A stretch of DNA of 64,000 bases from positions 7,449,001 through 7,513,000 of the forward strand of contig FNSS01000001.1 in assembly GCA_900104855.1 (NCBI GenBank). The letters run 5' to 3'. The DNA is from Rhizobiales bacterium GAS188 (GTDB lineage Bacteria > Pseudomonadota > Alphaproteobacteria > Rhizobiales > Beijerinckiaceae). The notes under the pieces were generated by a model, which saw only the letters and a program-made list of their open reading frames with translations, was not told the origin of the DNA and did no database searches. Positions 2-15,203 of this stretch are shown here, piece by piece (the stretch's first letter is position 1; the number at the start of each line of letters is the position of its first letter). Both the position numbers and the translations under genes were made by a program.

Positions 2-67
2 GAATCGCTCCTTGATGTCTATCTGCACGCCATCGAAAGCTCAGCGCCGCTGGCGAAAGCCGCCTGA
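2..67 (+). CDS. 3' end of an unidentified protein
   Basis: An open frame enters from the left edge and reads 21 codons to a TGA at 65-67 (ends ...APLAKAA). It could be the C-terminus of a plus-strand gene lying mostly outside the window. The stretch is too short to assign a family, and it may be a chance frame. Confidence 0.3.
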   Translation, partial: ESLLDVYLHAIESSAPLAKAA

Positions 68-137
68 AACGGCCTCTCGTGCAGCGAATCCGAAATTCGC
101 ATCACCACACTAGGCCCGACGGAAGGCTCCTTGTCGA

Positions 138-401
138 CTAAGACTTCCGGAGCCTGTCGACCAGGAGCTCGATAGTTGCGATCGAACGAAAATTCTCAAC
201 CGTGAGCTCGGGTTGCGGTATGGTGAGATCGAATTCGGCCTCGACCGCCAGCATCAGATTGACCATGTCGATCGAGCTCAGGCCGATCTCGCTGAGCACG
301 TCGCTCACCGAGATCGGTCGATCGATCGAATTCTTCTCCAGGATTTGACGCACAAGGCCGATCAGCCTGTGTCTCGACCCACCGGATGGGCTATCCAGCA
401 T
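138..401 (-). CDS. acyl carrier protein-like (aminoacyl carrier candidate)
   Basis: This 87-residue protein has the size and helical pattern of a free-standing carrier protein. The phosphopantetheine site reads EIGLSSIDMVNLM, with Ser43 as the expected attachment residue; the usual Asp before it is a Ser here. A GGGAG-type ribosome site precedes the ATG. It is divergent from the flavoenzyme at 856 and sits close to the amino acid:[carrier protein] ligase at 2245. Ligases of that family are known to aminoacylate small carrier proteins encoded nearby, so this is the most likely acceptor of the activated amino acid. The partner assignment is inferred from position. The holo form needs a phosphopantetheinyl transferase not found in this window. 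Confidence 0.85.
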   Translation of the reverse strand: MLDSPSGGSRHRLIGLVRQILEKNSIDRPISVSDVLSEIGLSSIDMVNLMLAVEAEFDLTIPQPELTVENFRSIATIELLVDRLRKS

Positions 402-597
402 CTCGACGCTCCCTCGAGCTCCCGTCGGACGGATAACCTCTCATCGTCCGAACAGCGAATATCTGCGCCCGACCCATAAGCTGCAAGCCGCAGAATACTC
501 TGAAGCAATTTGACGACATTTTATCGAAATTGCTATTCATCTGTGCCGCCTCGCGATGGGGCGACGGATTTGGACGCATAGTCGGACGAAATTGCGG

Positions 598-629
598 CAA
601 GTGACCGCATCTTCAAGTGACCGCATCTT
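598..629. repeat. 16-bp tandem direct repeat, 2 copies
   Basis: The unit CAAGTGACCGCATCTT occurs twice in a row (598-613 and 614-629) without mismatch. It lies in the 454-bp gap between the divergent carrier-protein and dehydrogenase genes. I see no convincing gene in that gap, which probably holds both promoters. Confidence 0.85.
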
Positions 630-855
630 TCCTTTCTACGCCGTGATCCGCTTCCGCCATCGAGGTCCGCTTTCCTTATCGAGATCGCCTGGGCCTGTGG
701 TCACATTGTCGTGGCCCCGGCGTTGCTACTGCCTTTCCGGCAAGTCCAGCGATGTCCCAATCCGGGACGAAGCGCGAGGCCGTGAGAATGCGTGATGGTC
801 CAAGACGGCTTTGACATCGCGCATCCACACCACAGGCGACCGAGAGGGTAAGACG

Positions 856-2097
856 ATGACCATGGTCGATATGCGTATTGCCAAGCCGGCCGGCCCCCGC
901 GCCAAGATCTTCGATGAGCTGATCAAATCGACCGGCGTATCCCTGGACCTCAAGGCCCGTGTGGAGAGTGCGGCTGTGATCGCAGCCAGCGCTGCCGCAC
1001 TCGTCGACGAGGGCGCCCGCTTTCCCGACGAGGCCTTCGCGGCGCTGCGGGAACAGCGTCTCTTGGGCATCCTGGTGCCGCGCGAGCTCGGCGGCGAAGG
1101 AGCGAGCATCTCGGACGTCGTCGATGTCTGCTACCGGCTCGGCCGGGCTTGTTCATCGACCGCGATGATCTATGCCATGCATCAGACCAAGGTCGCCTGC
1201 CTGGTGCGGCATGGCTACAAGAATCCCTGGCATCAGCGCCTGCTGCAACGGCTTTGCGCCGAGCAATTGTTGCTTGCCTCCTCGACCACGGAGGGGCAAG
1301 GCGGCGGCAATGTCCGTTCCAGCGAAGCCCCCATCGAAAGCGACGGCCACCGGATCGCGCTGACGCGCAATGCCGGCGTCATTTCCTACGGCGCCAAGGC
1401 CGACGGCATCGTGACCACGGCACGCCGCTCCGCCGACGCTTCGAGCTCCGATCAAGTGCTCGTGGCCTTCCTGAAAGAGGACTACACGCTCGAGCCGCAA
1501 AGCAGCTGGGACACGCTCGGCATGCGGGGCACCTGCAGCTCGGGGTTCATCCTGCGGGCAACGGGCGAACAGGCTCAAATCCTGCCTGACCCTTATGAGA
1601 AGATCCACGCCCAGACCATGACGCCGGTCGCCCATCTGATGTGGGCCGGCGCCTGGACCGGCATCGCCACCCATGCGGTCGACCGCGCCAGATCCTTCAT
1701 CCGCAAGGCCTCGCGTCAATCGGGCGGCCAGCTGCCGCCGGGCGCCGCGCAATTCACCAAGGCGAACTCATCCTTGAGCACGCTGCGCGCGGTCGTCGCC
1801 TCGGCGGTCGGGCGCTTCGAGCAGGTCCTGCACGACGAACGAGCCCTCGGCTCAGTGCCGTTTCAGGCCATGATCAATATGACCAAGGTCGACGCATCCG
1901 AGCTCGCGGTCACGACCGTGATGAGCGCGCTGCGGGCTTGCGGACTTTCGGGCTATCGCAATGACGGCGAGTTCAGCGTCGCCCGTCACCTGCGCGATGT
2001 GCTGTCCTCGCCGCTGATGATCAACAATGAGCGCATCATCGCCAACACGGCAACGGCGTCGCTGATGAGCGGCGCCCCGGACTCGCTGAGGGAGTGA
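856..2097 (+). CDS. acyl-CoA dehydrogenase family flavoprotein
   Basis: The 413-residue protein has the acyl-CoA dehydrogenase layout: an N-terminal helical domain (LREQRLLGILVPRELGG near residue 75), a middle beta domain (STTEGQGGGNVRSS, WDTLGMRGTCSSGF), and a C-terminal helical domain. I chose the ATG at 856, preceded by GAGAGGG, over an upstream TTG at 811. The family oxidises acyl thioesters with FAD. Relatives such as the pyrrole-forming PltE/RedW enzymes oxidise aminoacyl groups tethered to carrier proteins. Lying between a carrier protein and an amino acid:[carrier protein] ligase, this enzyme may act on an aminoacyl-S-carrier rather than on a CoA ester. That role is inference. Confidence 0.85.
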   Translation: MTMVDMRIAKPAGPRAKIFDELIKSTGVSLDLKARVESAAVIAASAAALVDEGARFPDEAFAALREQRLLGILVPRELGGEGASISDVVDVCYRLGRACSSTAMIYAMHQTKVACLVRHGYKNPWHQRLLQRLCAEQLLLASSTTEGQGGGNVRSSEAPIESDGHRIALTRNAGVISYGAKADGIVTTARRSADASSSDQVLVAFLKEDYTLEPQSSWDTLGMRGTCSSGFILRATGEQAQILPDPYEKIHAQTMTPVAHLMWAGAWTGIATHAVDRARSFIRKASRQSGGQLPPGAAQFTKANSSLSTLRAVVASAVGRFEQVLHDERALGSVPFQAMINMTKVDASELAVTTVMSALRACGLSGYRNDGEFSVARHLRDVLSSPLMINNERIIANTATASLMSGAPDSLRE

Positions 2098-2133
2098 CGC
2101 CGGCAGCAGGCAACGCCGCCTGCCGCAGCGCCA

Positions 2134-2214
2134 AATCTCCTGACACATCAAATCTCCTGACCCATCATATCTCCTGACCCATCATATCTCCTGACCCATC
2201 ATCTCTCGTGACCC
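2134..2214. repeat. 17-bp tandem repeat, about 4.8 copies
   Basis: The unit is (A/T)ATCTCCTGACCCATCA, with copies starting at 2134, 2151, 2168, 2185 and a degenerate partial copy at 2202. It fills most of the gap between the flavoenzyme and the ligase and ends about 30 bp before the ligase start codon. Each unit carries a CTCCTGA core. No coding function is apparent. Confidence 0.9.
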
Positions 2215-2244
2215 TTGCCGAGATCACAGCCAGAGCGGATCGAC

Positions 2245-3183
2245 ATGAATATCGCCATCAGGAAAATCGAAGACCTGCATTCCGTGGACGCGGAGGATCC
2301 GCAGGCCGCGCTGATCTTGGCGCTCTTCGGGCCGATGAGCGTCGAGGGCGTCTATGCGCGCACGGGCCTTTATGAAAGCGCCGTCGAAGGGCTCCAGCGC
2401 TTCATCACGCGCCGGCGCGAGCCGGGTACCGAAGTCTTCAGGTTCCCGCCCGTCATGAGCCGCCGCCATCTCGAGAAATCGGGATATCTCAAGAGCTTCC
2501 CCAATCTTCTCGGCTGCGTCTGCGCCCTGCACGGCCCCGATGCCGACATCCATTCGGCCGTCGCCCGCTTCGAGGCGGGGGCCGAGTGGACCTCCTCGCT
2601 GACGGCCGCCGATCTCGTGCTCACCCCTGCCTCCTGCTACCCGATCTATCCGCTGGCGGCCGAACGCGGCCCGGTTCCGGCGGGCGGCCTGCATTTCGAC
2701 GTCGCCTGCGATTGCTTCCGCCGCGAGCCGTCCCGCGACATCGACCGCCTGCAATCCTTCCGCATGCGCGAATATGTCTGCATCGGTTCGCCCGAGAAGG
2801 TCGCCGCATTCCGCGAGCGCTGGATCAAGCGCGGCCTCGAGATGGCGGCCGAGCTGAAGCTGCCCTGCAAGGTCGACCAGGCCAGCGATCCCTTCTTCGG
2901 CCGCGTCGGCCAGGTGATGGCGATCAGCCAGATCCAGCAATCCCTGAAATTCGAGCTGCTGATCCCGTTGCGCTCGGTGGACCGCCCGACCGCCTGCATG
3001 AGCTTCAACAATCATCGCGACCATTTCGGCGAGGTCTGGGACCTGCGCGACGAAGCCGGCAATGTCGCGCATACGGGTTGCGCCGCCTTCGGCATCGACC
3101 GGCTGGCCGTGGCGTTGTTCTGGACCCATGGCCTCGAGATTGGCAAATGGCCCGCGACGGTTCGCGACGCTCTCGGGCTCTAG
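2245..3183 (+). CDS. amino acid:[carrier protein] ligase (class II aaRS-like)
   Basis: The 312-residue protein is a truncated class II aminoacyl-tRNA synthetase homologue lacking the tRNA-binding N-terminal arm of SerRS. It belongs to the amino acid:[carrier protein] ligase family described from Bradyrhizobium (Bll0957). That family activates glycine or alanine with ATP and loads it on the phosphopantetheine of a carrier protein. Starting at the ATG at 2245, the expected zinc ligands fall at Cys131 (PASCYPIY), Glu176 (FRMREYVCI) and Cys279 (AHTGCAAFGIDR), the positions I recall for Bll0957. Motif 3 is TGCAAFGIDRLAVALF. Its stop overlaps the stop of the convergent SDR gene. The substrate amino acid and end product cannot be read from sequence. 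Confidence 0.93.
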   Translation: MNIAIRKIEDLHSVDAEDPQAALILALFGPMSVEGVYARTGLYESAVEGLQRFITRRREPGTEVFRFPPVMSRRHLEKSGYLKSFPNLLGCVCALHGPDADIHSAVARFEAGAEWTSSLTAADLVLTPASCYPIYPLAAERGPVPAGGLHFDVACDCFRREPSRDIDRLQSFRMREYVCIGSPEKVAAFRERWIKRGLEMAAELKLPCKVDQASDPFFGRVGQVMAISQIQQSLKFELLIPLRSVDRPTACMSFNNHRDHFGEVWDLRDEAGNVAHTGCAAFGIDRLAVALFWTHGLEIGKWPATVRDALGL

Positions 3184-3929
3184 GCGGTGCTCCCGGCATC
3201 GACGGTCATGACCGTGCCGGTGATGTTGCGTCCTCCCTCGCCGAGCAGGAACTCGACCGCGCTCGCCACATCCTCGACTTCCGGCAGGCGGCGTAGCGCG
3301 CTGCGCCCGGCCACCTTGCGGCGCTGATCGTCGCCGAGACCGCTCGTCATGTCGGTGTCCATGAAGCCGGGCGCGACCGCGTTGACATTGATGCCGACCC
3401 GCCCGACCTCGCGGGCGAGAGAGCGCGTCAGGCCGATCATGGACGCCTTGGTGCTGCCATAGACGGCAAGCCCGCTGAAGCCCGTGAAGCCGATGATGGA
3501 GGTGATATTGACGATGCGCCCCTTGCCCTCGGCCATCATCGCACGCACCGCATATTTGGTGAGGATGAGCGGCGACAAGGTGTTCAGGCGCACCAGCGTC
3601 TCGATCTGAGAATTGTGCATCGTCGCCAACAGCCCGTCAGTGCCGAGCGCCGCATTGTTGACGAGCCCGTAGATCGGGCCGAATTCCCGGCGAATCCGCT
3701 TGACGAGGTCTGGGATGGCCTTGATCTCGGCGAGGTCGAAAGGGATGAAATGCAGAGAGCCCAAATGTAGCGAGTCCTGGCCGGCTTCGGCGAGGTCCTC
3801 GATCGCCGATTTGAACTGCGCGCTGTCTTTGCGGGCGATGGCGATGACGCGGTAACCGGCGCCAGCGAGCCTGCGCGCGATGGCGAGGCCGAGCCCGCGG
3901 CTGCCGCCGGTGACCACGACGTTAAGCAT
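3180..3929 (-). CDS. SDR ketoreductase (FabG-like)
   Basis: The 249-residue classical short-chain dehydrogenase has the NAD(P) motif TGGSRGLG near residue 8, NNAALG, and a catalytic S-Y-K set (ITSIIGF and YGSTKASM). A FabG-like C-terminus (GFMDTDM, ITGTVMTVDAG) follows. It is the last gene of an operon with the acyl ligase (8-bp overlap) and carrier protein 2, so it probably reduces a beta-keto or related carbonyl on an acyl-carrier intermediate. An ATG-independent extension upstream exists but would overlap the ligase heavily; the Met at 3929 gives the canonical start of the Rossmann strand. Confidence 0.88.
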   Translation of the reverse strand: MLNVVVTGGSRGLGLAIARRLAGAGYRVIAIARKDSAQFKSAIEDLAEAGQDSLHLGSLHFIPFDLAEIKAIPDLVKRIRREFGPIYGLVNNAALGTDGLLATMHNSQIETLVRLNTLSPLILTKYAVRAMMAEGKGRIVNITSIIGFTGFSGLAVYGSTKASMIGLTRSLAREVGRVGINVNAVAPGFMDTDMTSGLGDDQRRKVAGRSALRRLPEVEDVASAVEFLLGEGGRNITGTVMTVDAGSTA

Positions 3930-5334
3930 TGGAGCGCGCCAGCTTGCCGGCCGTCGTGACATCGAGCGACGCCACGATGCGGATCGAGGCCGGAACCTTA
4001 TAGGGGGCAAGCTTGTCGCGGCACGCCTGCAGGATCCCCTTCTTGATCTCGCGGTCATCCGCGCCGGCTTGCGCGGCCAAAGCCTCATCCGTCAAGACGA
4101 CTTCGGCAACGATGATCGCGCCCGTTATCGGATTTCGCCTCGCCTTGACGAGCGACATCCGCACGCTTGCGTGGCGGTTGATGATCGCCTCGACTTCCTC
4201 GGGGTGTACCTTCAATCCGCCGACATTGATGATGCCGCCCCGCCGGCCGACGAAGTAATAGCGATCGCCACGCAGCTCCAGCATGTCGCCCGTATCGACG
4301 AAGCCGTCAGCGTCGGCGACCGCGCCGCCCCTTTGCCCGACATAGAGGCTCGCCGTGCGCGACGAACGGATGCGCAGCGAGCCATCTTCGACCTTCATCC
4401 GCACATCCCCGTCGCGCTGCATCAGGTTTGCCGGGAAGCCCTCGAGCCCATCGGTGACCTCGAAGCCGACGCCTGCCTCGGTCGAAGCATAGGCATGGCC
4501 GATCGCCGCGTGAGGATAGACGCGGCGCAGATTGTCGAGGATCGCCTGATCCGCGATCTCGCCCGACAAGCGCACATAATCGGGCGCAATCGCGCCGGCA
4601 TCGGGACTCATCAGGGCGCGTCGCCAATGGCTGGGCGTGCCTGAGATATGCGTCACCTTGGCGCGTGCGAGGCGATGCAGGTAATCGGCGACTGTCTCGG
4701 CGGCACTCGAGAGCACGAGCGAGCCCGTGCCGGTGACGGCGCGCAGGAAGATCTGCAGCCCGCCATAGCGGCGAATATCGTAGAAGGTGGCCCAGACGAT
4801 GGGAGTTTCGCGCTTTGTGAGGCTCTTGGGGGGGCTCTTGATCGCGCCGGTCAGGCCGTCGAGGCTGTGCATCACGAGCTTCGGCACGCCCGTGGTCCCC
4901 GAGGTCAGGAGCACCCATTCGGTGGCGCGCTCGCGCGCCACCGCTGCGGCACGCGGCACGATCGGCAAGCTGGAAGCGACAATCGGCAGGGACAGGCCGG
5001 GGAAAGCCGCGGCGTCGCGGTCAGTGATGATCGCCTCCGCAGCGGCATCGGCGGCGATGGGGGCCAGATATTCGGGCGGCAGATCGGCCGGGCACAGGGT
5101 GATCCGGCCTGCGACACCGTCGAGCTCGATCAGCGCCAGCGCCGAAGCCAATTGCTCCCTGGTGGCGATGAGCACCGACCGGCCGGCGAGATCCGCGAGA
5201 GGTAAGCCAAGCGTCGTGCCGGCGATGATTTCGCCAAGGGCGACGCCGGCATCGGCTCCCAGCAGCATGCGTCCGGACAGGTCGCCGGTGCCACGCAGCG
5301 CTTCAAGCAATGAGCTTGAACTATTTCGCTGCAT
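3922..5334 (-). CDS. AMP-forming acyl/amino acid ligase (ANL superfamily)
   Basis: The 470-residue protein carries the adenylation motifs in order: LLTSGTTGVPK (P-loop), YASTEAG, DTGDM, the hinge RRGGIINVGGLKVHPEEVE, and a C-terminal TAGKLAR holding the catalytic lysine. It is shorter than a typical acyl-CoA synthetase, with a compact N-terminal part. It overlaps the upstream carrier-protein gene by 14 bp and the downstream SDR by 8 bp, so the three are translated as one operon. The likely job is to activate a carboxylic acid and load carrier protein 2. The substrate is unknown. Confidence 0.88.
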   Translation of the reverse strand: MQRNSSSSLLEALRGTGDLSGRMLLGADAGVALGEIIAGTTLGLPLADLAGRSVLIATREQLASALALIELDGVAGRITLCPADLPPEYLAPIAADAAAEAIITDRDAAAFPGLSLPIVASSLPIVPRAAAVARERATEWVLLTSGTTGVPKLVMHSLDGLTGAIKSPPKSLTKRETPIVWATFYDIRRYGGLQIFLRAVTGTGSLVLSSAAETVADYLHRLARAKVTHISGTPSHWRRALMSPDAGAIAPDYVRLSGEIADQAILDNLRRVYPHAAIGHAYASTEAGVGFEVTDGLEGFPANLMQRDGDVRMKVEDGSLRIRSSRTASLYVGQRGGAVADADGFVDTGDMLELRGDRYYFVGRRGGIINVGGLKVHPEEVEAIINRHASVRMSLVKARRNPITGAIIVAEVVLTDEALAAQAGADDREIKKGILQACRDKLAPYKVPASIRIVASLDVTTAGKLARSNA

Positions 5335-5566
5335 CTTCGTAGAATTTCACAAAGTCCCCGAATGTCACCGGAAAATAGACCTCTTCCGAAGAGGTAAAGG
5401 GGTCCACGCCCAATTTGTCTTCAAGGCGAGAGACCAATATCGCAAAGCACAGGGAGTCGAGGCCGGAGTCCAATAAAGGAAGGTCATCCTTCAGCGCCGC
5501 GACAGTCTTGCCCTGCTCGGAGGCAACGTCCTCGATCTCCGAGATTATGGTGGACTTAACCGACAT
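5321..5566 (-). CDS. acyl carrier protein 2
   Basis: This 81-residue carrier protein has a canonical phosphopantetheine motif, LLDSGLDSLCF, with Ser38 as the attachment site. It is the first gene of the operon with the AMP-forming ligase and the SDR, and its 3' end overlaps the ligase by 14 bp. It differs clearly from the carrier protein at 138-401, so the locus holds two separate carriers. Confidence 0.9.
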   Translation of the reverse strand: MSVKSTIISEIEDVASEQGKTVAALKDDLPLLDSGLDSLCFAILVSRLEDKLGVDPFTSSEEVYFPVTFGDFVKFYEDAAK

Positions 5567-5651
5567 GCGCTATGCACTCCGCGATTGCCGCTCTCGATAT
5601 CCCTGACCGAGGCAGCAAATCAAGTCTATCGGGTCGCTATGGTGAAGATCC

Positions 5652-6542
5652 TTGCTGAACGTATCAGAGGCCAAAATCCGCTGCCGTCAGATCCGCGATG
5701 AGGATATCGGCGCAGTCATCGAGCTTCTGGCGAAGGGGTTTCCCGAGCGCAGCCGGAGCCATTGGGCCCGCGGCCTCGAGCGCCAGCGCGCCCAGGCGCT
5801 TCCCGATGACAGCCCGCGATACGGATATCTTCTCGAAAGCGCGGCCGTGCCGGTCGGCATCATCTTGCTGTTGTGCACCTCCCAGCACCTTGGCGAAGAG
5901 GCCGTGACGCGCTGCAACCTGTCGAGCTGGTATGTGGAGCCTACCTTCAGAAGCCATGCGTCGCTGCTGATCTCTTTCGCCATCAGGCAAAAGCAGGTCA
6001 CCTATGTGAATATCTCGCCGGCGAAGCACACCTGGCCGATCGTCGAGGCACACGGGTTCACCTGCTACAGCAGCGGACAATTCCTGGCGGCGGCCGCGGT
6101 GAACCGAGCGGAGCCGAGTGTCCGCCTGCATGAGATCAAGCCAGGCGGCTCCTTGCCGCCGCAGCTGAAGATTGCGTCGGCCGATGCCGGGTTGCTGACG
6201 GCCCATGCCGATTATGGCTGCCTGAGCCTCGTCTGCGAGGCAGCGGATGGCGGCCACCCCTTCGTCTTCCAGCCGATTGGCGTCAAGAGAGGCCTAATTC
6301 GCGTCCCCGGCGCGCAACTCATCTATTGCGGCTCGATCAGCGATTTCGTCCGCTTTGCCGGGGTGCTCGGTCGCTTCCTGCTGAAACGCGGGATGGTCTT
6401 CGTCTCGCTCGATGCGAACGGCCCGGTCGAAGGCCTGGTCGGCACCTTCCGCACCTCCTGGGGACGCAAATATTTCAAGGGGCCGAATGCGCCGCGGCTC
6501 GGCGATCTTGCCTATACCGAGATAGCGATCTTCGGCCCGTAG
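5652..6542 (+). CDS. GNAT-like acyltransferase, function unknown
   Basis: The 296-residue protein begins with a GNAT-like strand and helix (RQIRDEDIGAVIELLAKGFPE) and keeps a beta-strand followed by SSWYVEPTFRSHASLL, as in acetyltransferase cores. The C-terminal half is not one I recognise. The start is TTG at 5652; I found no ATG early in the frame. It is divergent from carrier protein 2 with an 85-bp gap, so the two may share a control region. It could transfer an acyl group from one of the carriers, but that is inferred only from position. Confidence 0.7.
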   Translation: MLNVSEAKIRCRQIRDEDIGAVIELLAKGFPERSRSHWARGLERQRAQALPDDSPRYGYLLESAAVPVGIILLLCTSQHLGEEAVTRCNLSSWYVEPTFRSHASLLISFAIRQKQVTYVNISPAKHTWPIVEAHGFTCYSSGQFLAAAAVNRAEPSVRLHEIKPGGSLPPQLKIASADAGLLTAHADYGCLSLVCEAADGGHPFVFQPIGVKRGLIRVPGAQLIYCGSISDFVRFAGVLGRFLLKRGMVFVSLDANGPVEGLVGTFRTSWGRKYFKGPNAPRLGDLAYTEIAIFGP

Positions 6543-6578: not shown

Positions 6579-6711
6579 AGCAAGTTGCTCCCCTGCATCG
6601 CGGCCGGGATTAGGGATATATCGAGTTTTTCATCGCAATAACATGCGGGCTGCGGCATCTGAGCCAAGACATCTTGCAGCATCGCCGCTGCCGATCTTCG
6701 AGAAGGCCTTC

Positions 6712-8391
6712 ATGGACGCGCATGCAAATCAACGGACCGCCGCCCGGGTGCTCGTCGATCAATTGATCGCCAACGGCGTCAGCCAGGTTTTCTGTGTTCC
6801 CGGCGAGAGCTTCCTCGCCGTGCTCGACGCCCTCCACGACAGCGACATCACCGTCACGGTGTGCCGCCAGGAGGGCGGCGCCGCCATGATGGCGGAGGCC
6901 GTGGGCAAGGCGACCGGAAGGCCCGGCATCTGTTTCGTCACGCGAGGCCCCGGTGCGACGAACGCCTCGGCCGGCATCCACATCGCCCAGCACGATTCCA
7001 CGCCCGTGATCATGTTCGTCGGCCAGGTCGAACGCAATCTGCGGGAGCGGGAGGCATTCCAGGAGATCGACTATCGCGCCATGTTCGGCGGCATGACCAA
7101 ATGGGTGACGGAAATCGACGACCCAGCCCGCATGCCCGAACTGGTGTCGCGAGCCTTCTACACCGCAACCTCCGGTCGTCCCGGCCCGGTCGTCGTCAGC
7201 CTGCCGAAGGACATGCTGGGCGAGCTCGTCGCCGTCGCCGACGCGCCTCTCTTCGAACCCGTCGAGACCTCTCCGGGCGCGCCCGAGATGGCGCAGCTCG
7301 AAAGCCACATCGCGGGCTCCGAACGCCCGATCTTCGTCCTGGGCGGCAGCCGTTGGACCGAGGATGCCTGCGCGGCGGTCAGACGCTTCGCCGAGCGCTT
7401 CGACATGCCGGTCGCGACCAGCTACCGGCGCGCGCCGCTCTTCGATGCGCTGCATCCTTGCTATGCCGGCGATATCGGCCTTGCTCCCAATCCCAAGCTG
7501 GTGACCAGGATCAAGGCCTCCGATCTCGTGGTCTGGGCGGGCGGACGCCTGGGCGAGCTGCCCTCGCAAGGCTATACGCTCTTCGAGCTGCCGGGGCCTC
7601 GCCAGGCCCTGGTGCATGTGCATCCGGGCGCCGAGGAGCTCGGCCGCGTCTACCGGCCGGCTCTCGCCATTCACGCTGCGCCGACACGCTTCGCGGCGGC
7701 GCTCGACACCTTGAAGCCGCCGGCCCATATCGGCTGGGGCGAGGCGACCAAGGCGGCTCATGGGGAATATCTCGCCTGGTCCGAGCTGCCGACCGAGCAA
7801 CCGGGCGGGGTGAATCTCGGCTCGGTCATGGTGTGGCTGCGCGAGCATGTGCCCTCCGACACGATCATCTGCAACGGATCCGGCAATTTTGCCGCCTGGA
7901 TCCATCGCTTCTATCGTTTCAGGCACTTCGCCACCCATATTGCCTCGACCTCCGCCTCCATGGGCTATGGCATGCCGACGGCAGTCGCCATGAAGCGTCT
8001 GCATCCGTCGCGGATGGTGTTGTCCGTGAATGGCGACGGCGATTTCCTCATGAACGGCCAGGAATTCGCAACCGCGGTGCAATATGACCTGCCGATCATC
8101 GTCATCATCTGCGACAATGGCATCTATGGGACGATCCGCATGCATCAGGAGCGCGAGTTTCCCGCACGGGTCTTTGCGACCGAATTGCGGAATCCAGACT
8201 TCAGCGCCTATGCGCGCGCCTTCGGCGGGTTCGGCGCGACAGTCGAAAGAACCGAGGATTTCGCTCAGGCTTTCAAGGCCGCGCAGGCATCGGGCAAGCC
8301 TGCGATCATCCATCTCAAGATCGATCCGGAGGCCATCACGCCGACGACGACACTCATGAAGATCCGTGAGCAGGCCCTGCGCAGACAGTGA
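6712..8391 (+). CDS. ThDP-dependent lyase, acetolactate synthase-like
   Basis: The 559-residue protein has the three-domain layout of acetolactate synthase and benzoylformate decarboxylase relatives. It has the catalytic glutamate in CRQEGGAAMMAEA (Glu54) and a central domain of the DHS-like type. The ThDP/Mg motif VNGDGDF...CDNGIYG lies near residues 440-470. The ATG at 6712 follows GAGAAGG. Its stop overlaps the GTG of the esterase, so the two form an operon. No regulatory ilvH-type subunit is nearby, which argues against a housekeeping acetolactate synthase. A 2-oxo acid decarboxylase or carboligase role is more likely, with substrate unknown. Confidence 0.88.
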   Translation: MDAHANQRTAARVLVDQLIANGVSQVFCVPGESFLAVLDALHDSDITVTVCRQEGGAAMMAEAVGKATGRPGICFVTRGPGATNASAGIHIAQHDSTPVIMFVGQVERNLREREAFQEIDYRAMFGGMTKWVTEIDDPARMPELVSRAFYTATSGRPGPVVVSLPKDMLGELVAVADAPLFEPVETSPGAPEMAQLESHIAGSERPIFVLGGSRWTEDACAAVRRFAERFDMPVATSYRRAPLFDALHPCYAGDIGLAPNPKLVTRIKASDLVVWAGGRLGELPSQGYTLFELPGPRQALVHVHPGAEELGRVYRPALAIHAAPTRFAAALDTLKPPAHIGWGEATKAAHGEYLAWSELPTEQPGGVNLGSVMVWLREHVPSDTIICNGSGNFAAWIHRFYRFRHFATHIASTSASMGYGMPTAVAMKRLHPSRMVLSVNGDGDFLMNGQEFATAVQYDLPIIVIICDNGIYGTIRMHQEREFPARVFATELRNPDFSAYARAFGGFGATVERTEDFAQAFKAAQASGKPAIIHLKIDPEAITPTTTLMKIREQALRRQ

Positions 8392-9368
8392 GCGCAAGCC
8401 TCATGACGCGTGGTCGATCGCAGGACGAGCTCATGCCGATGGACAAGCATGCCAAGCGCTTCCTGGACATGCTGGCGATCACCGGCTCGAAGGATGCGAC
8501 AGGCGAAACCGCTGCGCAGCGGCGGGCCGCCTATCAGAGCCTGATGAGGTTGTCGCAATCCTCAACCGAGCCCTGCGCCATCGAGGATCGCGTCATGACC
8601 GGCCCCGGCGGCCCCTTGGCGCTCCGCGTCTACATCCCGGGCTCGGCCCCGGCCGGCCGCCTGCCGGGGCTCGTCTATTTCCATGGGGGCGGCTTGGTTG
8701 CCGGTAGCCTCAACGACTATGACGGCATCTGCTCGGCGCTGGCGGCCGAGACCGGCTGCCGGCTGGTGTCGGTCGATTATCGCCTGGCGCCCGAGCACAA
8801 ATTCCCTGCAGCCGTCATCGACAGCTATGCGGCGACGCTATGGGTCGCCGAGCATGCGGCCGAACTGGGGATCGACCAGGACCGTATCGCGGTCGCGGGC
8901 GATTCCGCTGGCGGCGGGCTCGCCGCCGGTGTCTGCCAGATGGCAAAGCAGGAGAACGGCCCGGAACTCGCGCTGCAGTTGCTCTTATGCCCGGTCCTCG
9001 ATTGCGATCCGGCGACGCCATCTCGCCTCGCTTTCGCGCAGGGACATCTGCTCGACCAGGCGACCATGGACCGCGATCTTGCGCATTATTGCCCGAGCGG
9101 CGTCGATCCAAAGGACCCTCGCCTATCGCCGCTGCGTGCGCACGAGCTCGCGGGATTGCCGCAAGCCCAAATCCACACTGCGGAATTCGACCCGCTGCGC
9201 GACGAAGGGAAGGCTTATGCCGAAAGGCTGGCACTCGCCGGCGTCAAGGTGAACCATAGGTGCCATGCCGGCATGATCCACCATTTCTATGGGATGGCCG
9301 GCATCATTCCATACGCGCGGACGGCATTGAGGCTGATCGGCGCCGAGGTCAAATCAGCGCTTGCCTGA
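8388..9368 (+). CDS. HSL-family alpha/beta hydrolase (esterase)
   Basis: The 326-residue protein has hormone-sensitive-lipase family marks: the oxyanion motif YFHGGGLV, the nucleophile motif GDSAGGG, an Asp in AEFDPLRDEG and a His in MIHHFYG. The GTG at 8388 overlaps the stop of the ThDP enzyme (GTGA), which suggests translational coupling; an ATG at 8403 is an alternative start. It probably hydrolyses a short acyl ester. A role in releasing a product of the upstream enzymes is speculative. Confidence 0.88.
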   Translation: MSASLMTRGRSQDELMPMDKHAKRFLDMLAITGSKDATGETAAQRRAAYQSLMRLSQSSTEPCAIEDRVMTGPGGPLALRVYIPGSAPAGRLPGLVYFHGGGLVAGSLNDYDGICSALAAETGCRLVSVDYRLAPEHKFPAAVIDSYAATLWVAEHAAELGIDQDRIAVAGDSAGGGLAAGVCQMAKQENGPELALQLLLCPVLDCDPATPSRLAFAQGHLLDQATMDRDLAHYCPSGVDPKDPRLSPLRAHELAGLPQAQIHTAEFDPLRDEGKAYAERLALAGVKVNHRCHAGMIHHFYGMAGIIPYARTALRLIGAEVKSALA

Positions 9369-9440: not shown

Positions 9441-11294
9441 TCACAGGCGCAGCGTCCCGGCCTTGATGAGCTCGTAGAGCGCAGCGTCCAAGGGCACATA
9501 GGCGCGCAGCTGCGGATGGTCGAAATAGAGACGGTCCGACACGATGGCTGGATCGAAGCCTTCGCGGACCAGATTGTGCTTCTTCTGCTTGAAGGTCTCG
9601 GTGATCTCGAGCTCAGTGCCGATCCTCAGGAATAAGGGGCGCGCATAATCGGCCAACCTTTCGGTGAGATGGGCGCGAAGCGCCACGAGATCGAAGGAAG
9701 TGTCGACCACCAGCGCAGCCATGCCGGCGCGCCCCTCGGTGCCCGGCACGGCGACGCCATAGGCATTCGCCTCGACGACACCGGGACAAGACGAGATCGC
9801 CTCCGACACCTCGACGGTCGCGACATTCTCGCCTTTCCAGCGAAAGGTGTCGCCGACACGATCGACGAAATAGAAGAAGCCCATTTCGTCTTGCCGCATC
9901 AGATCGCCCGTGCGCAGCCAGGAATCGCCTTCGGCAAAGACATTGCGCAGGATCTTCTTCTCGGTATCTTCGCTGCTGGTATAGCCTTCGAAGCGATTGG
10001 CCGGATTGGAACCGTCGGCCGAGATCTTGCCGATGGCCTCGCCGACCTCGCCGCGCGAACAGCGGACGCAGAATCCGTGCTCATCACGAGCCGGTTCGCT
10101 CGTCTCGATATCGAATTTGACGATCGCGGCCGGGAAGCCATGTGCCATGAAGGGCGGAATGCGGCCGATCGCGCCGGGCTTGCCTTCGAGATTGTAGAGC
10201 GAAAAATTCCCCTCCGTCGCCGCATAGAATTCCAGGATCTGCGGAATGCGAAAGCGCTCCTTGAATCCGTTCCAGACATCGGCACGCAAGCCATTGCCGC
10301 AGCACAATCTCAGCCGATGCTCCCTGACGCTCTCCGACGCCGGCGAGTTGATGAGATAGCGGCAGAGCTCACCGATATATTGGAACAGCGAACAGTCGAA
10401 TGCGACGATATCGTCCCAAAAGCTGCGCGCCGAGAACTTCTCCTTGATCACCACGGAACCGCCGGCGACGAGGAGGCTGCCCGTCGCGACCACGCCGCCG
10501 ATGCTGTGATACATGGGCAGGCAATTGTACATGCGATCGCTCGCGCGCGCATCCATCATGCCGGCGAACCAATAGCTCCACGACATGATGCGGTGGTGGC
10601 TGACATTGGCGGCCTTCGGCAGGCCGGTCGTCCCCGAAGTGTAGATGCACAGGGCCCGCTGCGAGAGCGACACGTCGCGGCGCTCCGATGCGGCGAGCTC
10701 CTCGCCGCCATAGCGCTCGATCTCGAGATCGATCCGGGTGAAGCCATCATCCTGCATGCCGGGCGTCGCGCCATGCACCGATAGCGGCACGGCGCCGTCG
10801 AGATGCGAGGCCGCCTGCCCGAAGGCTTCGAGCAGCTCCGCCGCGACGATGACATGTTTCGGATCAGCGATCTTGATGCAATGGGCGAGCGCCGCATTGG
10901 TCAGATTGGTGTTCAGCAGCGCCACCACGCCTCCGACCTGCGTGATGCCGAGCCAGATCGCCATATATTCCGGGCGATTGGGCATCAGCAGGCAGATCGT
11001 CCCGTCGACCCGCAAGCCCTGGTCGAGCGCCCAACGTGCATAGCGGTTCGCTCGTTCGGCCAGTTGGCGGAAGCTGAAGCATTCGCGATCAGACAGCAGA
11101 GCCGGCGTATCGCCCGCGGCCTGCGCCTGTTCGGCGATGACCATGGGAAGCGTCCGCAAGGGCGCACGCCCGATGCGCGAGGTCAGCTCGAGCGCGCGCA
11201 GCCAGCCCTTGGTTGCCGATGCAGCGGGCCGAGGCGCATCTGCCGTTCTGTTCTGCTCGCTGACGTCCATCGCCGAAATTGCCCGGATTGCCAT
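9441..11294 (-). CDS. FATP/VLCS-type fatty acyl-CoA synthetase
   Basis: The 617-residue ANL enzyme has YTSGTTGLPKAANVSHHR, YAATEGN, LRTGDL, and the VLCS/FATP-type hinge FVDRVGDTFRWKGENV. A C-terminal ITETFKQKKHNL is typical of very-long-chain acyl-CoA synthetases. It converts a fatty acid, ATP and CoA to acyl-CoA. It converges on the esterase and is not in an operon. A Met at 11270 is an alternative start. It may supply acyl-CoA to the neighbouring pathway or serve general lipid metabolism. Confidence 0.88.
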   Translation of the reverse strand: MAIRAISAMDVSEQNRTADAPRPAASATKGWLRALELTSRIGRAPLRTLPMVIAEQAQAAGDTPALLSDRECFSFRQLAERANRYARWALDQGLRVDGTICLLMPNRPEYMAIWLGITQVGGVVALLNTNLTNAALAHCIKIADPKHVIVAAELLEAFGQAASHLDGAVPLSVHGATPGMQDDGFTRIDLEIERYGGEELAASERRDVSLSQRALCIYTSGTTGLPKAANVSHHRIMSWSYWFAGMMDARASDRMYNCLPMYHSIGGVVATGSLLVAGGSVVIKEKFSARSFWDDIVAFDCSLFQYIGELCRYLINSPASESVREHRLRLCCGNGLRADVWNGFKERFRIPQILEFYAATEGNFSLYNLEGKPGAIGRIPPFMAHGFPAAIVKFDIETSEPARDEHGFCVRCSRGEVGEAIGKISADGSNPANRFEGYTSSEDTEKKILRNVFAEGDSWLRTGDLMRQDEMGFFYFVDRVGDTFRWKGENVATVEVSEAISSCPGVVEANAYGVAVPGTEGRAGMAALVVDTSFDLVALRAHLTERLADYARPLFLRIGTELEITETFKQKKHNLVREGFDPAIVSDRLYFDHPQLRAYVPLDAALYELIKAGTLRL

Positions 11295-11873: not shown

Positions 11874-13178
11874 ATGCGAAGTGAAACCATCGCGCTGCAT
11901 AGCGGCTACGAGGTCGATCCGACGACCAAATCGGTGGCAGTGCCGATTTACCAGACCGTCGCCTACGAATTCGAAAGTGCCGATCATGGGGCGGCCCTGT
12001 TCAATCTCGAAGTCGACGGCTTCCGCTACAGCCGCATCGGCAATCCCACCAATGCCGTTCTCGAGCGGCGGGTCGCCGAGCTCGAAGGAGGCGTTGCATC
12101 GCTTGCCGTCAGCTCCGGCCAGGCGGCCTTGCACTTCGCGATCGTCAACCTCGCCGATTGCGGCGGCAACATCATTTCGGTGCCACAGCTTTACGGCACG
12201 ACGCATACGCTCTTCGCGCATATTCTTCGCCGGCAAGGCATCGAAGCCCGCTTCGCGGCGAGCGACCAGCCCGGCGCCATCGAAGCCCTGATCGACGACA
12301 AGACCAGAGCGGTATTCTGCGAGAGCATCGGCAATCCGGCCGGCAATATTTGCGACATCGAAGCGCTGGCCGAGGTGGCGCATCGCCATGGGGTGCCGCT
12401 GATCGTCGACAATACGGTCGCAACTCCGATCCTGCTTCGCCCGATCGAATATGGCGCGGATGTCGTCGTGCATTCCTTGACCAAGTTCATGGGAGGACAT
12501 GGCACCACGCTCGGCGGCGCCATCGTCGATAGCGGCCGCTTCCCCTGGATCGAGAACGCCGCGCGCTTTCCGATGTTCAACGAGCCTGATCATTCCTATC
12601 ACGGTCTCGTCTATGCGACGCATTTCGGCCCCAGCGCCTATATCGAGCGTTGCCGCAGCGTCTATCAGCGCACCATGGGGTCGGTTCTGTCGCCGCTGAA
12701 CGCCTTCCTGCTGCTGCAAGGGATCGAGACTGTCGCGCTGCGGGTCGAGCGCCATGTCGAGAACGCCCGGAAGGTCGCCGAATTCCTGCGCGCCGACGCG
12801 CGCGTGGAGTGGGTCAATTATGCGGGATTCAGCGACAATCCCTACAACACACTGGCCAAAAAATACCTGAACGGCCATGGCTCCTCGCTATTCACCTTCG
12901 GGGTCAAGGGCGGGCTCGAGGCCGGCAAGGCCTTCTACGATGCGCTCAAGCTGATCAAGCGGCTCGTCAATATCGGCGATGCCAAGTCGCTTGCCTGCCA
13001 CCCGGCATCGACGACGCATCGCCAAATGCCTGCCGAAGAGCAGCGAAAGGCGGGCGTCACGCCGGAAATGATCCGCATCAGCGTCGGCATCGAGCATGTG
13101 GCCGATATCCTCGAGGACCTGGATCAGGCCCTCGATGCGGCATCTCGCTTCGTGAACATGACGCTGGTGGCGCAATAG
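11874..13178 (+). CDS. metY: O-acetyl/O-succinylhomoserine sulfhydrylase-like PLP enzyme
   Basis: The 434-residue protein is a Cys/Met-metabolism PLP enzyme of the longer O-acylhomoserine sulfhydrylase type. It shows YSRIGNPTN near residue 52, SGQAALHFAI near 81, VDNTVATP, and the PLP lysine in HSLTKFMGGHGTT (Lys204). It makes homocysteine from O-acylhomoserine and sulfide. A homoserine acyltransferase-like gene follows 29 bp downstream, so the pair covers two successive steps of methionine synthesis. Because it lies beside a biosynthetic-looking locus, it could instead use a non-sulfide nucleophile. I looked for a SAM-II-like leader upstream and could not support one. Confidence 0.88.
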   Translation: MRSETIALHSGYEVDPTTKSVAVPIYQTVAYEFESADHGAALFNLEVDGFRYSRIGNPTNAVLERRVAELEGGVASLAVSSGQAALHFAIVNLADCGGNIISVPQLYGTTHTLFAHILRRQGIEARFAASDQPGAIEALIDDKTRAVFCESIGNPAGNICDIEALAEVAHRHGVPLIVDNTVATPILLRPIEYGADVVVHSLTKFMGGHGTTLGGAIVDSGRFPWIENAARFPMFNEPDHSYHGLVYATHFGPSAYIERCRSVYQRTMGSVLSPLNAFLLLQGIETVALRVERHVENARKVAEFLRADARVEWVNYAGFSDNPYNTLAKKYLNGHGSSLFTFGVKGGLEAGKAFYDALKLIKRLVNIGDAKSLACHPASTTHRQMPAEEQRKAGVTPEMIRISVGIEHVADILEDLDQALDAASRFVNMTLVAQ

Positions 13179-14343: not shown

Positions 14344-14516
14344 ATCAGATCTCAGCCTTCGCAACATAGGTCCTGTCCGAATACCTGCGCATCAACGCGT
14401 TGCAACCGGCAGGCCACGGCGAATCTCACATATTTTCGACATGAACATGATGTAATGTGCCAGTCACTTTGCGGTCGGCATCGATCGCTTTGGGGGACAC
14501 GGCGATTCCTTGGCCC

Positions 14517-14623
14517 CAAGTCCTTGCCACAAATTCTGGCCCCAAGTCCTTCGTTCCAAGTCCTTCGTCCCAAGTCCTTCGTTCCAAGTCCTTGGCCCAA
14601 AGTCCTTGCCGCAAGTCCTGCCC
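14517..14623. repeat. 14-bp tandem repeat block
   Basis: The unit CAAGTCCTTCGTTC is repeated with drift at 14543, 14557, 14571, 14585, 14599 and 14612, preceded by a related copy at 14517. It lies in the 990-bp gap between metA and mucR, where no credible gene is seen. Open frames across it are low-complexity products of the repeat. Confidence 0.9.
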
Positions 14624-14776
14624 AAGCGACATCATGCGATGTCGAGATGTGGCCGGCAGCACTGGCCGAGCACTATGCGCTTTGCCCTCCCGGTAAGGCC
14701 AGGGGCCGTGCTGTGGCCCGATGAATACCCAGATCTTCGTCGACCATCGTCGATTTGCCGAAAAGATGACCAAGAT

Positions 14777-14828
14777 TCACAGATTTGGAATCACAGATTG
14801 GAATCGCAGATTGCAATCTTAGATTGCC
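14777..14828. repeat. 13-14 bp tandem repeat, 4 copies
   Basis: Copies of TCACAGATTTGGAA-like sequence start at 14777, 14791, 14804 and 14817, degrading toward the right. The block is unrelated to the one at 14517 in the same gap. Confidence 0.85.
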
Positions 14829-15203
14829 TTTGCCTACCGATCGGGACAGGCCGGCACCGGCGTAATATTCGCCTGATCGTGACCACAGAAAAGCGAATCA
14901 GGCGAGCGCCAATTCGGCACGCGTTGACTGAAACGTGATCCTGTCAGTCCAGGCCAGCACATATCTTGGCGGTTGCATGCACGAAATTCGCAGATGTCCG
15001 GAAAATTGGCTTGCATATCGAGAATCCGCTGGTATCTACGCAGCTTAGCCGTGTATGATGCGCGGAGGTTCGATGGCAGCTCGGCATGCCGGGTATTCCC
15101 AAAAACAACCAGCGGGAATTGAGGTTTTGCCAACCGGCTTTCGTTTATCTACAATCTATGTCAGTTAAGCGGGGGGATCAGACATCCAACGGAGGATAAT
15201 TAC

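What the first reader, a model, noticed from the sequence alone, without database searches (positions are those of the whole stretch)
138..6542. Candidate undescribed aminoacyl-thioester pathway built on two carrier proteins
Sequence shows a carrier protein, an acyl-CoA-dehydrogenase-like flavoprotein and an amino acid:[carrier protein] ligase with the zinc ligands Cys131/Glu176/Cys279. Next to them is a second carrier protein with its own AMP-forming ligase and ketoreductase, plus a GNAT-like protein. Family knowledge: such ligases load Gly or Ala on small carrier proteins, and the downstream product is not established as far as I know. Inference: the flavoprotein oxidises the tethered aminoacyl group, as PltE/RedW do for prolyl-carrier, and the product may be joined to an acyl group from carrier 2 by the acetyltransferase-like enzyme.
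Basis: partly seen in the sequence, partly recalled or inferred. Interest (0 to 1): 0.85.

Follow-up and report, generated by a model that had tools for sequence, protein, structure and literature searches.

The report
Two-carrier amino-acid thioester gene cluster
A block of about a dozen neighbouring genes appears to load an amino acid, probably glycine, onto one small carrier protein and another acid onto a second carrier, and to modify and join them into a product nobody has identified; it offers a concrete, testable role for a family of tRNA-synthetase-like enzymes whose purpose is still unknown.

Summary
In detail: the seven genes named are at 138-6542. They belong to a larger recurring set reaching about 14215 (plus ThDP enzyme, esterase, FadD, MetY, MetA). 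In 199 genomes of the window's family, clade A ligase (31), CP2-ligase (38), GNAT (40) and MetA (37) co-occur, all four in 30; ligase and CP2-ligase lie within 10 kb in 21 of 31. The ligase is closest in the PDB to Bll0957, an amino acid:carrier ligase of unknown biological role. Two inferences change. The flavoprotein lacks the usual dehydrogenase glutamate in 9 of 9 sequences, its best fold match is the monooxygenase DszC, and a flavin reductase adjoins the cluster in 6 of 125 loci (five genomes); I prefer a monooxygenase to a PltE/RedW-type oxidase, although dehydrogenases match better by sequence. The 'GNAT-like' protein is a tandem GNAT. A sister ligase clade has DUF1839 beside the ligase (20 of 21 loci; no hit in 125 clade A or CP2-module loci); a similar neighbourhood was predicted in 2010 to aminoacylate surface sugars (PMC2922099). 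I found no account of the two-carrier version in open-licence papers. Product unknown. Real; new variant of a poorly understood kind.

The parts
138..401 (-). CP1, small carrier protein; presumed Ppant serine in the motif GLSSIDMV
   Evidence: PF00550 30.9 bits; serine aligned in 11 of 11 sequences; divergent from the flavoprotein gene in 24 of 25, 7 of 8 and 7 of 7 loci holding both
856..2097 (+). Acyl-CoA-dehydrogenase-superfamily flavoprotein, read here as a probable two-component monooxygenase acting on aminoacyl-CP1 (ORF opens at 811; probable start 856)
   Evidence: PF02771/PF00441; no Glu at the usual base position; Foldseek top match DszC, a dehydrogenase second, KijD3 rank 14
2245..3183 (+). 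Amino acid:[carrier protein] ligase, clade A; closest solved structure Bll0957 (ORF opens at 2215)
   Evidence: NF005479 450.8 bits; PDB 3mey 458 bits; C131/E176/C279; tree
3180..3929 (-). SDR, FabG-like ketoreductase; start MLNVVVTGG overlaps the end of the AMP-ligase gene by 8 bp
   Evidence: PF13561, PF00106; start; within 150 bp of the AMP-ligase, same strand, in 29 of 29 and 76 of 77 loci holding both
3922..5334 (-). AMP-forming ligase, presumed to load CP2
   Evidence: PF00501 and PF13193; 38 of 199 family genomes; 371 relatives found in a scan of 84,980 species genomes, best 80 kept
5321..5566 (-). CP2, small carrier protein with motif GLDSL
   Evidence: PF00550 24.9 bits; within 150 bp of the AMP-ligase, same strand, in 27 of 30 and 79 of 79 loci holding both
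5652..6542 (+). Tandem-GNAT protein, presumed acyl/aminoacyl transferase; 85 bp divergent from CP2
   Evidence: AlphaFold pLDDT 84.7; Foldseek to tandem GNAT structures, best E 1.5e-9, TM to query 0.57, 6% identity; 40 of 199 family genomes
6643..8391 (+). ThDP-dependent enzyme of the acetolactate synthase type (PRK08199)
   Evidence: NF006052 880.6 bits, cut-off 539; next to GNAT, same strand, in 14 of 15 and 6 of 6 loci holding both
8388..9368 (+). Alpha/beta-hydrolase (LipP1-like esterase), possible release enzyme; overlaps the ThDP gene by 4 bp
   Evidence: PF07859 245.7 bits; in 14 of 38 and 8 of 80 loci
9441..11294 (-). FadD/FATP-like acyl-CoA synthetase (PRK08279)
   Evidence: NF006134 762.6 bits, cut-off 625; in 16 of 38 and 71 of 80 loci
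11874..13178 (+). MetY-like O-acylhomoserine gamma-replacement enzyme
   Evidence: TIGR01326 603.9 bits, cut-off 495; paralogues of 49% and 43% elsewhere in the genome
13304..14215 (+). MetA-like homoserine O-acyltransferase
   Evidence: NF003776 426 bits, cut-off 358; present in 31 of 31 clade A ligase genomes

Best explanation
This is a dedicated two-carrier assembly pathway for an amino-acid-derived small molecule or surface substituent. Steps inferred from family membership: the ligase adenylates a small amino acid (glycine, if it behaves like Bll0957; that specificity is recalled) and loads it on CP1. The acyl-CoA-dehydrogenase-like flavoprotein, fed reduced flavin by a reductase, monooxygenates the CP1-bound aminoacyl group, most likely on nitrogen or on the alpha carbon. 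The AMP-forming ligase loads a second carboxylic acid on CP2 and the SDR reduces it there. The tandem GNAT transfers one carrier-bound group to an amine, forming an amide. MetA and MetY supply a homoserine-derived amino acid by gamma-replacement; an aminotransferase (BCAT) and the ThDP enzyme handle a 2-oxo acid; the hydrolase may release the product. Shown here: gene content, families, co-inheritance, conserved order, missing dehydrogenase glutamate, GNAT fold, flavin-reductase neighbours in some genomes. Inferred: every reaction, the order of steps and the product.
For: Co-occurrence in 199 genomes: clade A ligase 31, CP2-ligase 38, GNAT 40, MetA 37, all four 30; pairwise Fisher p 7e-26 to 5e-33, uncorrected for relatedness. 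Ligase and CP2-ligase within 10 kb in 21 of 31 (coordinates). Two Bauldia loci have 13 genes in one run. One genome has reductase, flavoprotein, ligase, CP1, MetY and MetA consecutive on one strand (L077). Flavoprotein: Ile in 9 of 9 at the MCAD-type position and Ala/Ser in 9 of 9 at the IVD-type position (placed by eye); DszC best fold match, KijD3 rank 14; flavin reductase (PF01613, 144 bits) beside the cluster in 6 of 125 loci, five genomes, next to MetA or the flavoprotein on the same strand each time. An independent 2010 prediction for related loci also favoured monooxygenation.
Against: By sequence, dehydrogenases match better than monooxygenases: 3pfd 57.3, 7p98 50.1 and 5ol2 49.1 bits against DszC 39.3 and KijD3 33.4; profile 7p98 76.0 against nitrososynthase 3mxl 51.6; best family model a FadE16-type dehydrogenase, 101.7 bits, below its cut-off of 600. 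By fold they are nearly tied, on a fair model (pLDDT 73, last 33 residues below 50). 119 of 125 loci, the window included (L069), show no such flavin reductase; the nearest homologue in the genome is 7 Mb away. In Bradyrhizobium the two carrier modules sit in different places. The CP2 module occurs without clade A ligase in 7 of 38 family genomes (four of these have a clade B ligase) and without one in 2 of 2 Acidobacteria/Rokubacteria genomes searched. Substrates of both ligases are untested.
Confidence: 0.5

Rival explanations
1. The product is a substituent of a surface sugar: an amino acid, oxidised on CP1, or the acyl group of CP2 is transferred to the amine of an amino sugar in an exopolysaccharide, lipopolysaccharide or flagellar glycan.
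For: Predicted in 2010 for a ligase neighbourhood that includes Atu2574. A CP2-ligase-SDR trio, 31-34% identical over the ligase, lies in loci with NeuB-family genes in 3 of 5 distant relatives. A similar gene set (homology not tested) is in Aeromonas flagellin glycosylation islands (PMC7874193 passages). A chain-length-determinant/kinase-like gene (Wzz domain confirmed in the 2 tested) lies beside the cluster in 4 of 38 loci, and a glycosyltransferase in L109.
Against: No glycosyltransferase or nucleotide-sugar gene belongs to the recurring set; the one glycosyltransferase cluster seen recurs in 3 loci. No NeuB hit in the 125 cluster loci. DUF1839 had no hit in those 125 loci. MetA, MetY, BCAT and the ThDP enzyme point to amino-acid chemistry.
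Confidence: 0.3
2. One reading: the flavoprotein is a dehydrogenase/oxidase that makes an imino- or dehydro-aminoacyl-CP1, as PltE and RedW do for prolyl-carrier.
For: Acyl-CoA dehydrogenase family membership; dehydrogenases outscore monooxygenases by sequence and 3pfd is the second fold match; 7p98 is a dehydrogenase with Thr rather than Glu at the usual position in the alignment, so the fold can do without it.
Against: No Glu at the usual position in 9 of 9 sequences; RedW model 29.3 of 650 bits; flavin reductase neighbours in five genomes.
Confidence: 0.2
3. The modules are independent pathways that merely travel together: the CP1 ligase makes one metabolite, CP2-ligase-SDR another, MetA/MetY extra methionine.
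For: Modules are separable in Bradyrhizobium and in 10 of 31 family genomes; the CP2 module exists without the clade A ligase.
Against: 0 of 31 clade A ligase genomes lack the CP2-ligase or the MetA gene; the GNAT pairs with either module; single-run clusters in Bauldia.
Confidence: 0.1

Closest known systems
Amino acid:[carrier protein] ligases Bll0957 (Bradyrhizobium) and relatives (Mocibob et al. 2010, 2013; recalled, papers not held)
   Same: Closest solved structure (458 bits), same zinc ligands, acyl-CoA-dehydrogenase gene beside it. In B. diazoefficiens bll0957 and bll0958 (acd) are both upregulated in a phaR mutant (PMC10888616, one table passage).
   Different: The published work, as recalled and as cited in passages of a 2022 review (PMC9437257), leaves the biological role open; the CP2 module, MetA/MetY and GNAT links are added here.
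   Same: CP, redox flavoprotein and ligase; monooxygenation of the aminoacyl group proposed.
   Different: Its Atu2574-plus-glycosidase context resembles the sister clade here (DUF1839 beside the ligase in 20 of 21 loci); that Atu2574 is DUF1839 is my inference. Clade A has a tandem GNAT, CP2-ligase-SDR, MetA, MetY, ThDP enzyme and BCAT instead.
Prolyl-carrier oxidases PltE/RedW
   Same: Acyl-CoA dehydrogenase fold, substrate presumably on a carrier protein.
   Different: Catalytic glutamate not kept; RedW model far below cut-off.
Two-component flavin monooxygenases DszC, KijD3, DnmZ
   Same: Among the closest folds; they also lack the dehydrogenase glutamate (recalled); flavin reductase nearby in five genomes.
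   Different: Lower sequence scores than dehydrogenases; the substrate would be tethered to a carrier protein; activity untested.
ACP / AMP-synthetase / ketoreductase set in Aeromonas flagellin glycosylation islands (PMC7874193, passages read)
   Same: The same three gene types; the distant trio relatives here lie in loci with NeuB-family genes.
   Different: Homology to the Aeromonas genes not tested; no amino acid:carrier ligase is named in the passages read.

Membership tests
Amino acid:[carrier protein] ligase | Family profile above the curated cut-off | tested here: met
   NF005479 450.8 bits against 357
Amino acid:[carrier protein] ligase | Zinc ligands Cys/Glu/Cys | tested here: met
   C131, E176, C279, columns invariant in 13 of 13
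Amino acid:[carrier protein] ligase | Carrier protein encoded nearby | tested here: met
   Window: CP1 at 138-401. CP1 found in 25 of 38, 8 of 80 and 7 of 7 loci; the ligase itself in 29, 8 and 7 of them
Amino acid:[carrier protein] ligase | Loads Gly or Ala on holo-carrier and not on tRNA | not testable with these tools
   needs enzymology
Prolyl-carrier oxidase (PltE/RedW) | RedW profile above cut-off | tested here: not met
   NF045652 29.3 bits against 650
Acyl-CoA dehydrogenase / prolyl-carrier oxidase | Catalytic Glu at the MCAD-type position (position recalled; profile alignment to 7p98) | tested here: not met
   I389 in 9 of 9
Acyl-CoA dehydrogenase / prolyl-carrier oxidase | Catalytic Glu at the IVD-type position (recalled; placed by eye, no IVD alignment shown) | tested here: inconclusive
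   A or S at 259 in 9 of 9, invariant H260 beside it
Two-component flavin monooxygenase | Fold of DszC/KijD3 | tested here: inconclusive
   DszC ranks first but dehydrogenases are close behind and score higher by sequence; model pLDDT 73
Two-component flavin monooxygenase | Flavin reductase partner | tested here: inconclusive
   Beside the cluster in 6 of 125 loci, five genomes, not in the window; nearest in G000 is remote
Sister system with DUF1839 (clade B) | DUF1839 next to the ligase | tested here: not met
   No hit in 125 clade A or CP2-module loci, 44 of which hold the ligase; 20 of 21 clade B loci have it
GNAT acyltransferase | GNAT fold, here two domains | tested here: met
   Foldseek 3n7z, 2i00, 7q3a and others, E about 1e-9, TM to query 0.35-0.58 in the top 20
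GNAT acyltransferase | R/QxxGxG/A pyrophosphate loop (motif recalled) | tested here: not met
   N-terminal domain reads R-x-x-A with R100 and A103 invariant; read by eye; would fit a donor other than free acetyl-CoA

The most novel reading that the evidence does not exclude
Aminoacyl-CP1 is N-oxygenated on the carrier, and the N-oxygenated amino acid is joined by the tandem GNAT and the MetA/MetY pair to a homoserine-derived unit and the CP2 acyl group. That would be a new class of N-O-containing amino acid metabolite built on a tRNA-synthetase-like ligase, spread through Bradyrhizobium and Methylobacterium relatives. Suggestive only: oxidative enzymes of three unrelated families turn up in related settings (the DszC/KijD3-like flavoprotein here, a Haem_oxygenas_2 protein in the Acidobacteria/Rokubacteria version, an AurF-like protein beside a distant ligase in an acidobacterial MAG).
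Probability: 0.15. Interest if true: 0.88.

Novelty: new variant of a known kind. Interest (0 to 1): 0.7.

Why it matters
Amino acid:carrier protein ligases have solved structures and known biochemistry, but a 2022 review still says the role of the loaded carrier is unknown (PMC9437257 passages). This work splits them into two clades with different partner genes, names the partner set of the clade that holds the Bradyrhizobium Bll0957 type, and shows that it is co-inherited with a second carrier module and homoserine enzymes. The open question becomes testable by single-gene deletions in tractable laboratory strains. It also suggests that some genes annotated as acyl-CoA dehydrogenase, methionine biosynthesis or fatty acid ligase in these genomes serve this pathway rather than primary metabolism.

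Tried and rejected
Sphingolipid-type pathway (acyl-ACP ligase, ACP, reductase and GNAT resemble it, recalled): set aside because no alpha-oxoamine synthase was seen among the recurring clusters (by eye, no dedicated search). Amino-acid recognition by the CP2 ligase through an Asp at the NRPS position 235: first suspected from the motif YDIRRYGG, dropped because the alignments to MenE and 4CL put an Arg or Tyr near there; substrate left open. Rhizobitoxine- or AVG-like gamma-replacement, canaline, hadacidin and DMSP-like routes were considered from memory; I found no specific gene for any. Known gene-cluster literature: no match. Chance adjacency: rejected. Some statements are my reading of tool coordinates or scores, not a script: 21 of 31 within 10 kb; the 31-genome cut between clade A and the rest (scores 380 and 347 on either side; the tree separates the sampled members; 39 other genomes with a ligase hit are not counted as clade A); the 37-genome MetA set (above 200 bits; 4 weaker genomes of 41 dropped). 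The Fisher values ignore relatedness. The two locus sets overlap: at least three contigs (L090/L110, L094/L117, L098/L142) are in both.


Full report
What is there. The ligase passes its curated model (450.8 of 357 bits). It is closest in the PDB to Bll0957 (3mey, 458 bits) and keeps C131, E176 and C279. Spacing in the window suggests co-transcription: SDR/AMP-ligase overlap by 8 bp, AMP-ligase/CP2 by 14, ThDP/hydrolase by 4, and CP2 and GNAT diverge from an 85 bp gap.

The set is bigger. Orthologue clustering of 40 neighbourhoods and a comparison with the 80 best loci of a scan of 84,980 species genomes (371 relatives found, best 80 kept) show a recurring set: CP1, flavoprotein, ligase, SDR, AMP-ligase, CP2, GNAT, ThDP enzyme, alpha/beta-hydrolase, FadD, MetY, MetA, and a branched-chain-type aminotransferase (BCAT). 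In Bauldia litoralis and a second Bauldia all 13 lie in one run. In the window twelve of them, BCAT excepted, reach to 14215; a BCAT homologue (52%) is 0.5 Mb away. The genome also has other MetY-like genes (49%, 43%) and a second, 35% MetA, so the cluster copies look dedicated. Two contigs of the family match Methylobacterium jeotgali and Methylobacteriaceae records in length and position, so the family is probably GTDB Beijerinckiaceae (name recalled); the window's species was not identified.

Co-inheritance. In 199 genomes of the family, drawn evenly from a larger group: clade A ligase in 31, CP2-ligase in 38, GNAT in 40, MetA type in 37. All 31 ligase genomes have the CP2-ligase and the MetA gene and 30 have the GNAT; 30 have all four. 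Fisher p values are 7e-26 to 5e-33 but ignore relatedness; by genus the four genes occur in 12, 14, 17 and 16 genera. Ligase and CP2-ligase are within 10 kb in 21 of 31; in the other 10 they are on different contigs or, in G087, about 1.1 Mb apart (coordinates). Against the reading: 7 genomes have the CP2-ligase without clade A ligase (four of them have a clade B ligase), 4 have GNAT without CP2-ligase, and 2 have MetA without CP2-ligase. The three other species of the window's genus have neither ligase. In Bradyrhizobium, FadD-CP2-AMP-ligase-SDR and CP1-flavoprotein-ligase-GNAT sit in separate places. In Bradyrhizobium dw_411 the latter block also holds BCAT, MetY and MetA (L203).

Two clades of ligase. 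A tree of 44 sequences puts 21 family ligases in one fully supported clade (B, 100/100) apart from the window and Bradyrhizobium sequences. The window lies in a supported set of 17 rows (96/96) with the Bradyrhizobium ones; the remaining clade A rows branch outside it without resolved order. In clade B the flavoprotein (42-49% identical; 20 of 21 loci) and ligase are followed by DUF1839 in 20 of 21 loci; a CP was picked up by my CP1 query in 8 of 21. The locus without DUF1839 (L247) ends about 0.1 kb past the ligase. A glycosidase neighbour was checked by profile only in L108. DUF1839 gave no hit in the 125 clade A or CP2-module loci, 44 of which hold the ligase. The 2010 note in proof of PMC2922099 (section 17 read) describes ligase, ACP, a redox enzyme, Atu2574, a glycosidase and liposaccharide genes, and predicts ligation of a monooxygenated amino acid to a surface-sugar amine. 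I infer that Atu2574 is DUF1839; a 2023 paper classifies DUF1839 as papain-like and suggests glycan processing at the cell wall (PMC10318531, three passages). So the two clades share a front end and differ in the presumed transferase: DUF1839 in B, tandem GNAT in A.

The flavoprotein. Profile alignment to 7p98 places I389 where dehydrogenases carry the usual Glu; it is Ile in 9 of 9 sequences. The other known position, placed by eye, is Ala or Ser, followed by an invariant His260 (the reference positions are recalled). Foldseek ranks DszC first, a dehydrogenase second, TdsC third, KijD3 14th, all with similar scores, on a fair model (pLDDT 73). By sequence the dehydrogenases do better: 3pfd 57.3, 7p98 50.1, DszC 39.3, KijD3 33.4 bits; with a profile, 7p98 76.0 and the nitrososynthase 3mxl 51.6. 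A flavin reductase (PF01613, 144 bits) lies beside the cluster in 6 of 125 loci, from five genomes: next to MetA in four genomes, and in L077 upstream of the flavoprotein in the same-strand order reductase, flavoprotein, ligase, CP1, MetY, MetA. The other 119 loci, the window's included, have none nearby, and flavin reductases are common (6 hits in this genome), so this is support by tight adjacency, not by frequency. I prefer monooxygenation to the PltE/RedW analogy (RedW model 29.3 of 650 bits) but cannot prove it.

The GNAT-like protein. AlphaFold (12-row alignment, pLDDT 84.7) and Foldseek match tandem GNATs such as 3n7z, 2i00 and MAB_4324 (E about 1e-9, identity 6-16%), with N-myristoyltransferases further down. 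It is divergent to CP2 in 22 of 23 and 11 of 11 loci and follows the ligase in 7 of 7 Bradyrhizobium ligase loci, so it can belong to either module. Its first domain lacks the usual glycine of the CoA loop (motif recalled), which fits a carrier-bound donor but is weak evidence.

The CP2 module. CP2-AMP-ligase-SDR is the most widely spread part. In Acidobacteria and Rokubacteria MAGs it usually comes with FadD, MetY and MetA plus a Haem_oxygenas_2 protein (10 loci) and a PLP decarboxylase (7 loci), one member of each confirmed by profile; a clade A ligase was found in 0 of 2 such genomes searched. Five distant relatives were read: three lie in loci with NeuB-family genes; the other two have no NeuB hit, no CP2 hit, and keep ligase and SDR, 7 kb apart in one. 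Aeromonas flagellin glycosylation islands carry the same three gene types (PMC7874193 passages); homology was not tested. This supports a role as acyl-donor module and keeps a surface-sugar target open. A chain-length-determinant-like gene beside 4 of 38 clade A loci (Wzz domain confirmed in 2 of 2 tested) and a glycosyltransferase in Bauldia point the same way.

Literature. [quoted passage not shown] bll0957 and bll0958 are both upregulated in a phaR mutant of B. diazoefficiens (PMC10888616, one table passage). The original Mocibob 2010 paper was not held; Gly specificity of Bll0957 is recalled. No paper describing the two-carrier set appeared in the listings of searches, which cover open-licence PMC only.

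Verdict. The mechanism is plausible to the level of modules (about 0.5 for the outlined scheme); the product is unknown. It is a new variant of a known but functionally unexplained kind.

Noticed in passing
window 66-109: A 25-41 base stretch is repeated at 15 other places in the same genome at 85-100% identity; looks like a small dispersed repeat.
   Followed up: no
L112-L115, L120, L124, L133, L135, L139, L164: Acidobacteria and Rokubacteria MAGs carry the CP2-ligase-SDR module, usually with FadD, MetY and MetA, together with a Haem_oxygenas_2-like protein and often a PLP decarboxylase, and no amino acid:carrier ligase in the stretch read.
   Followed up: partly
L205:4297-6383: A distant amino acid:carrier ligase (33%) in an acidobacterial MAG lies next to an AurF-like N-oxygenase (PF11583, 136.6 bits) and, by eye, near a Rossmann reductase-like and an AMP-ligase-like gene.
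   Followed up: partly
L227, L228, L229: Distant CP2-ligase-SDR trios sit in loci with NeuB-family genes in other proteobacteria, like the uncharacterised ACP/reductase/AMP-synthetase set reported in Aeromonas flagellin glycosylation islands.
   Followed up: partly
L245-L262, L264, L107, L108: Clade B ligase system: flavoprotein, ligase and DUF1839 in a fixed order in 21 family loci (DUF1839 in 20).
   Followed up: partly
window 14352-15000: Stretch with imperfect repeated peptides in several frames (for example repeats of LGPKS/FVPSP), possibly a short tandem repeat region just after MetA.
   Followed up: no
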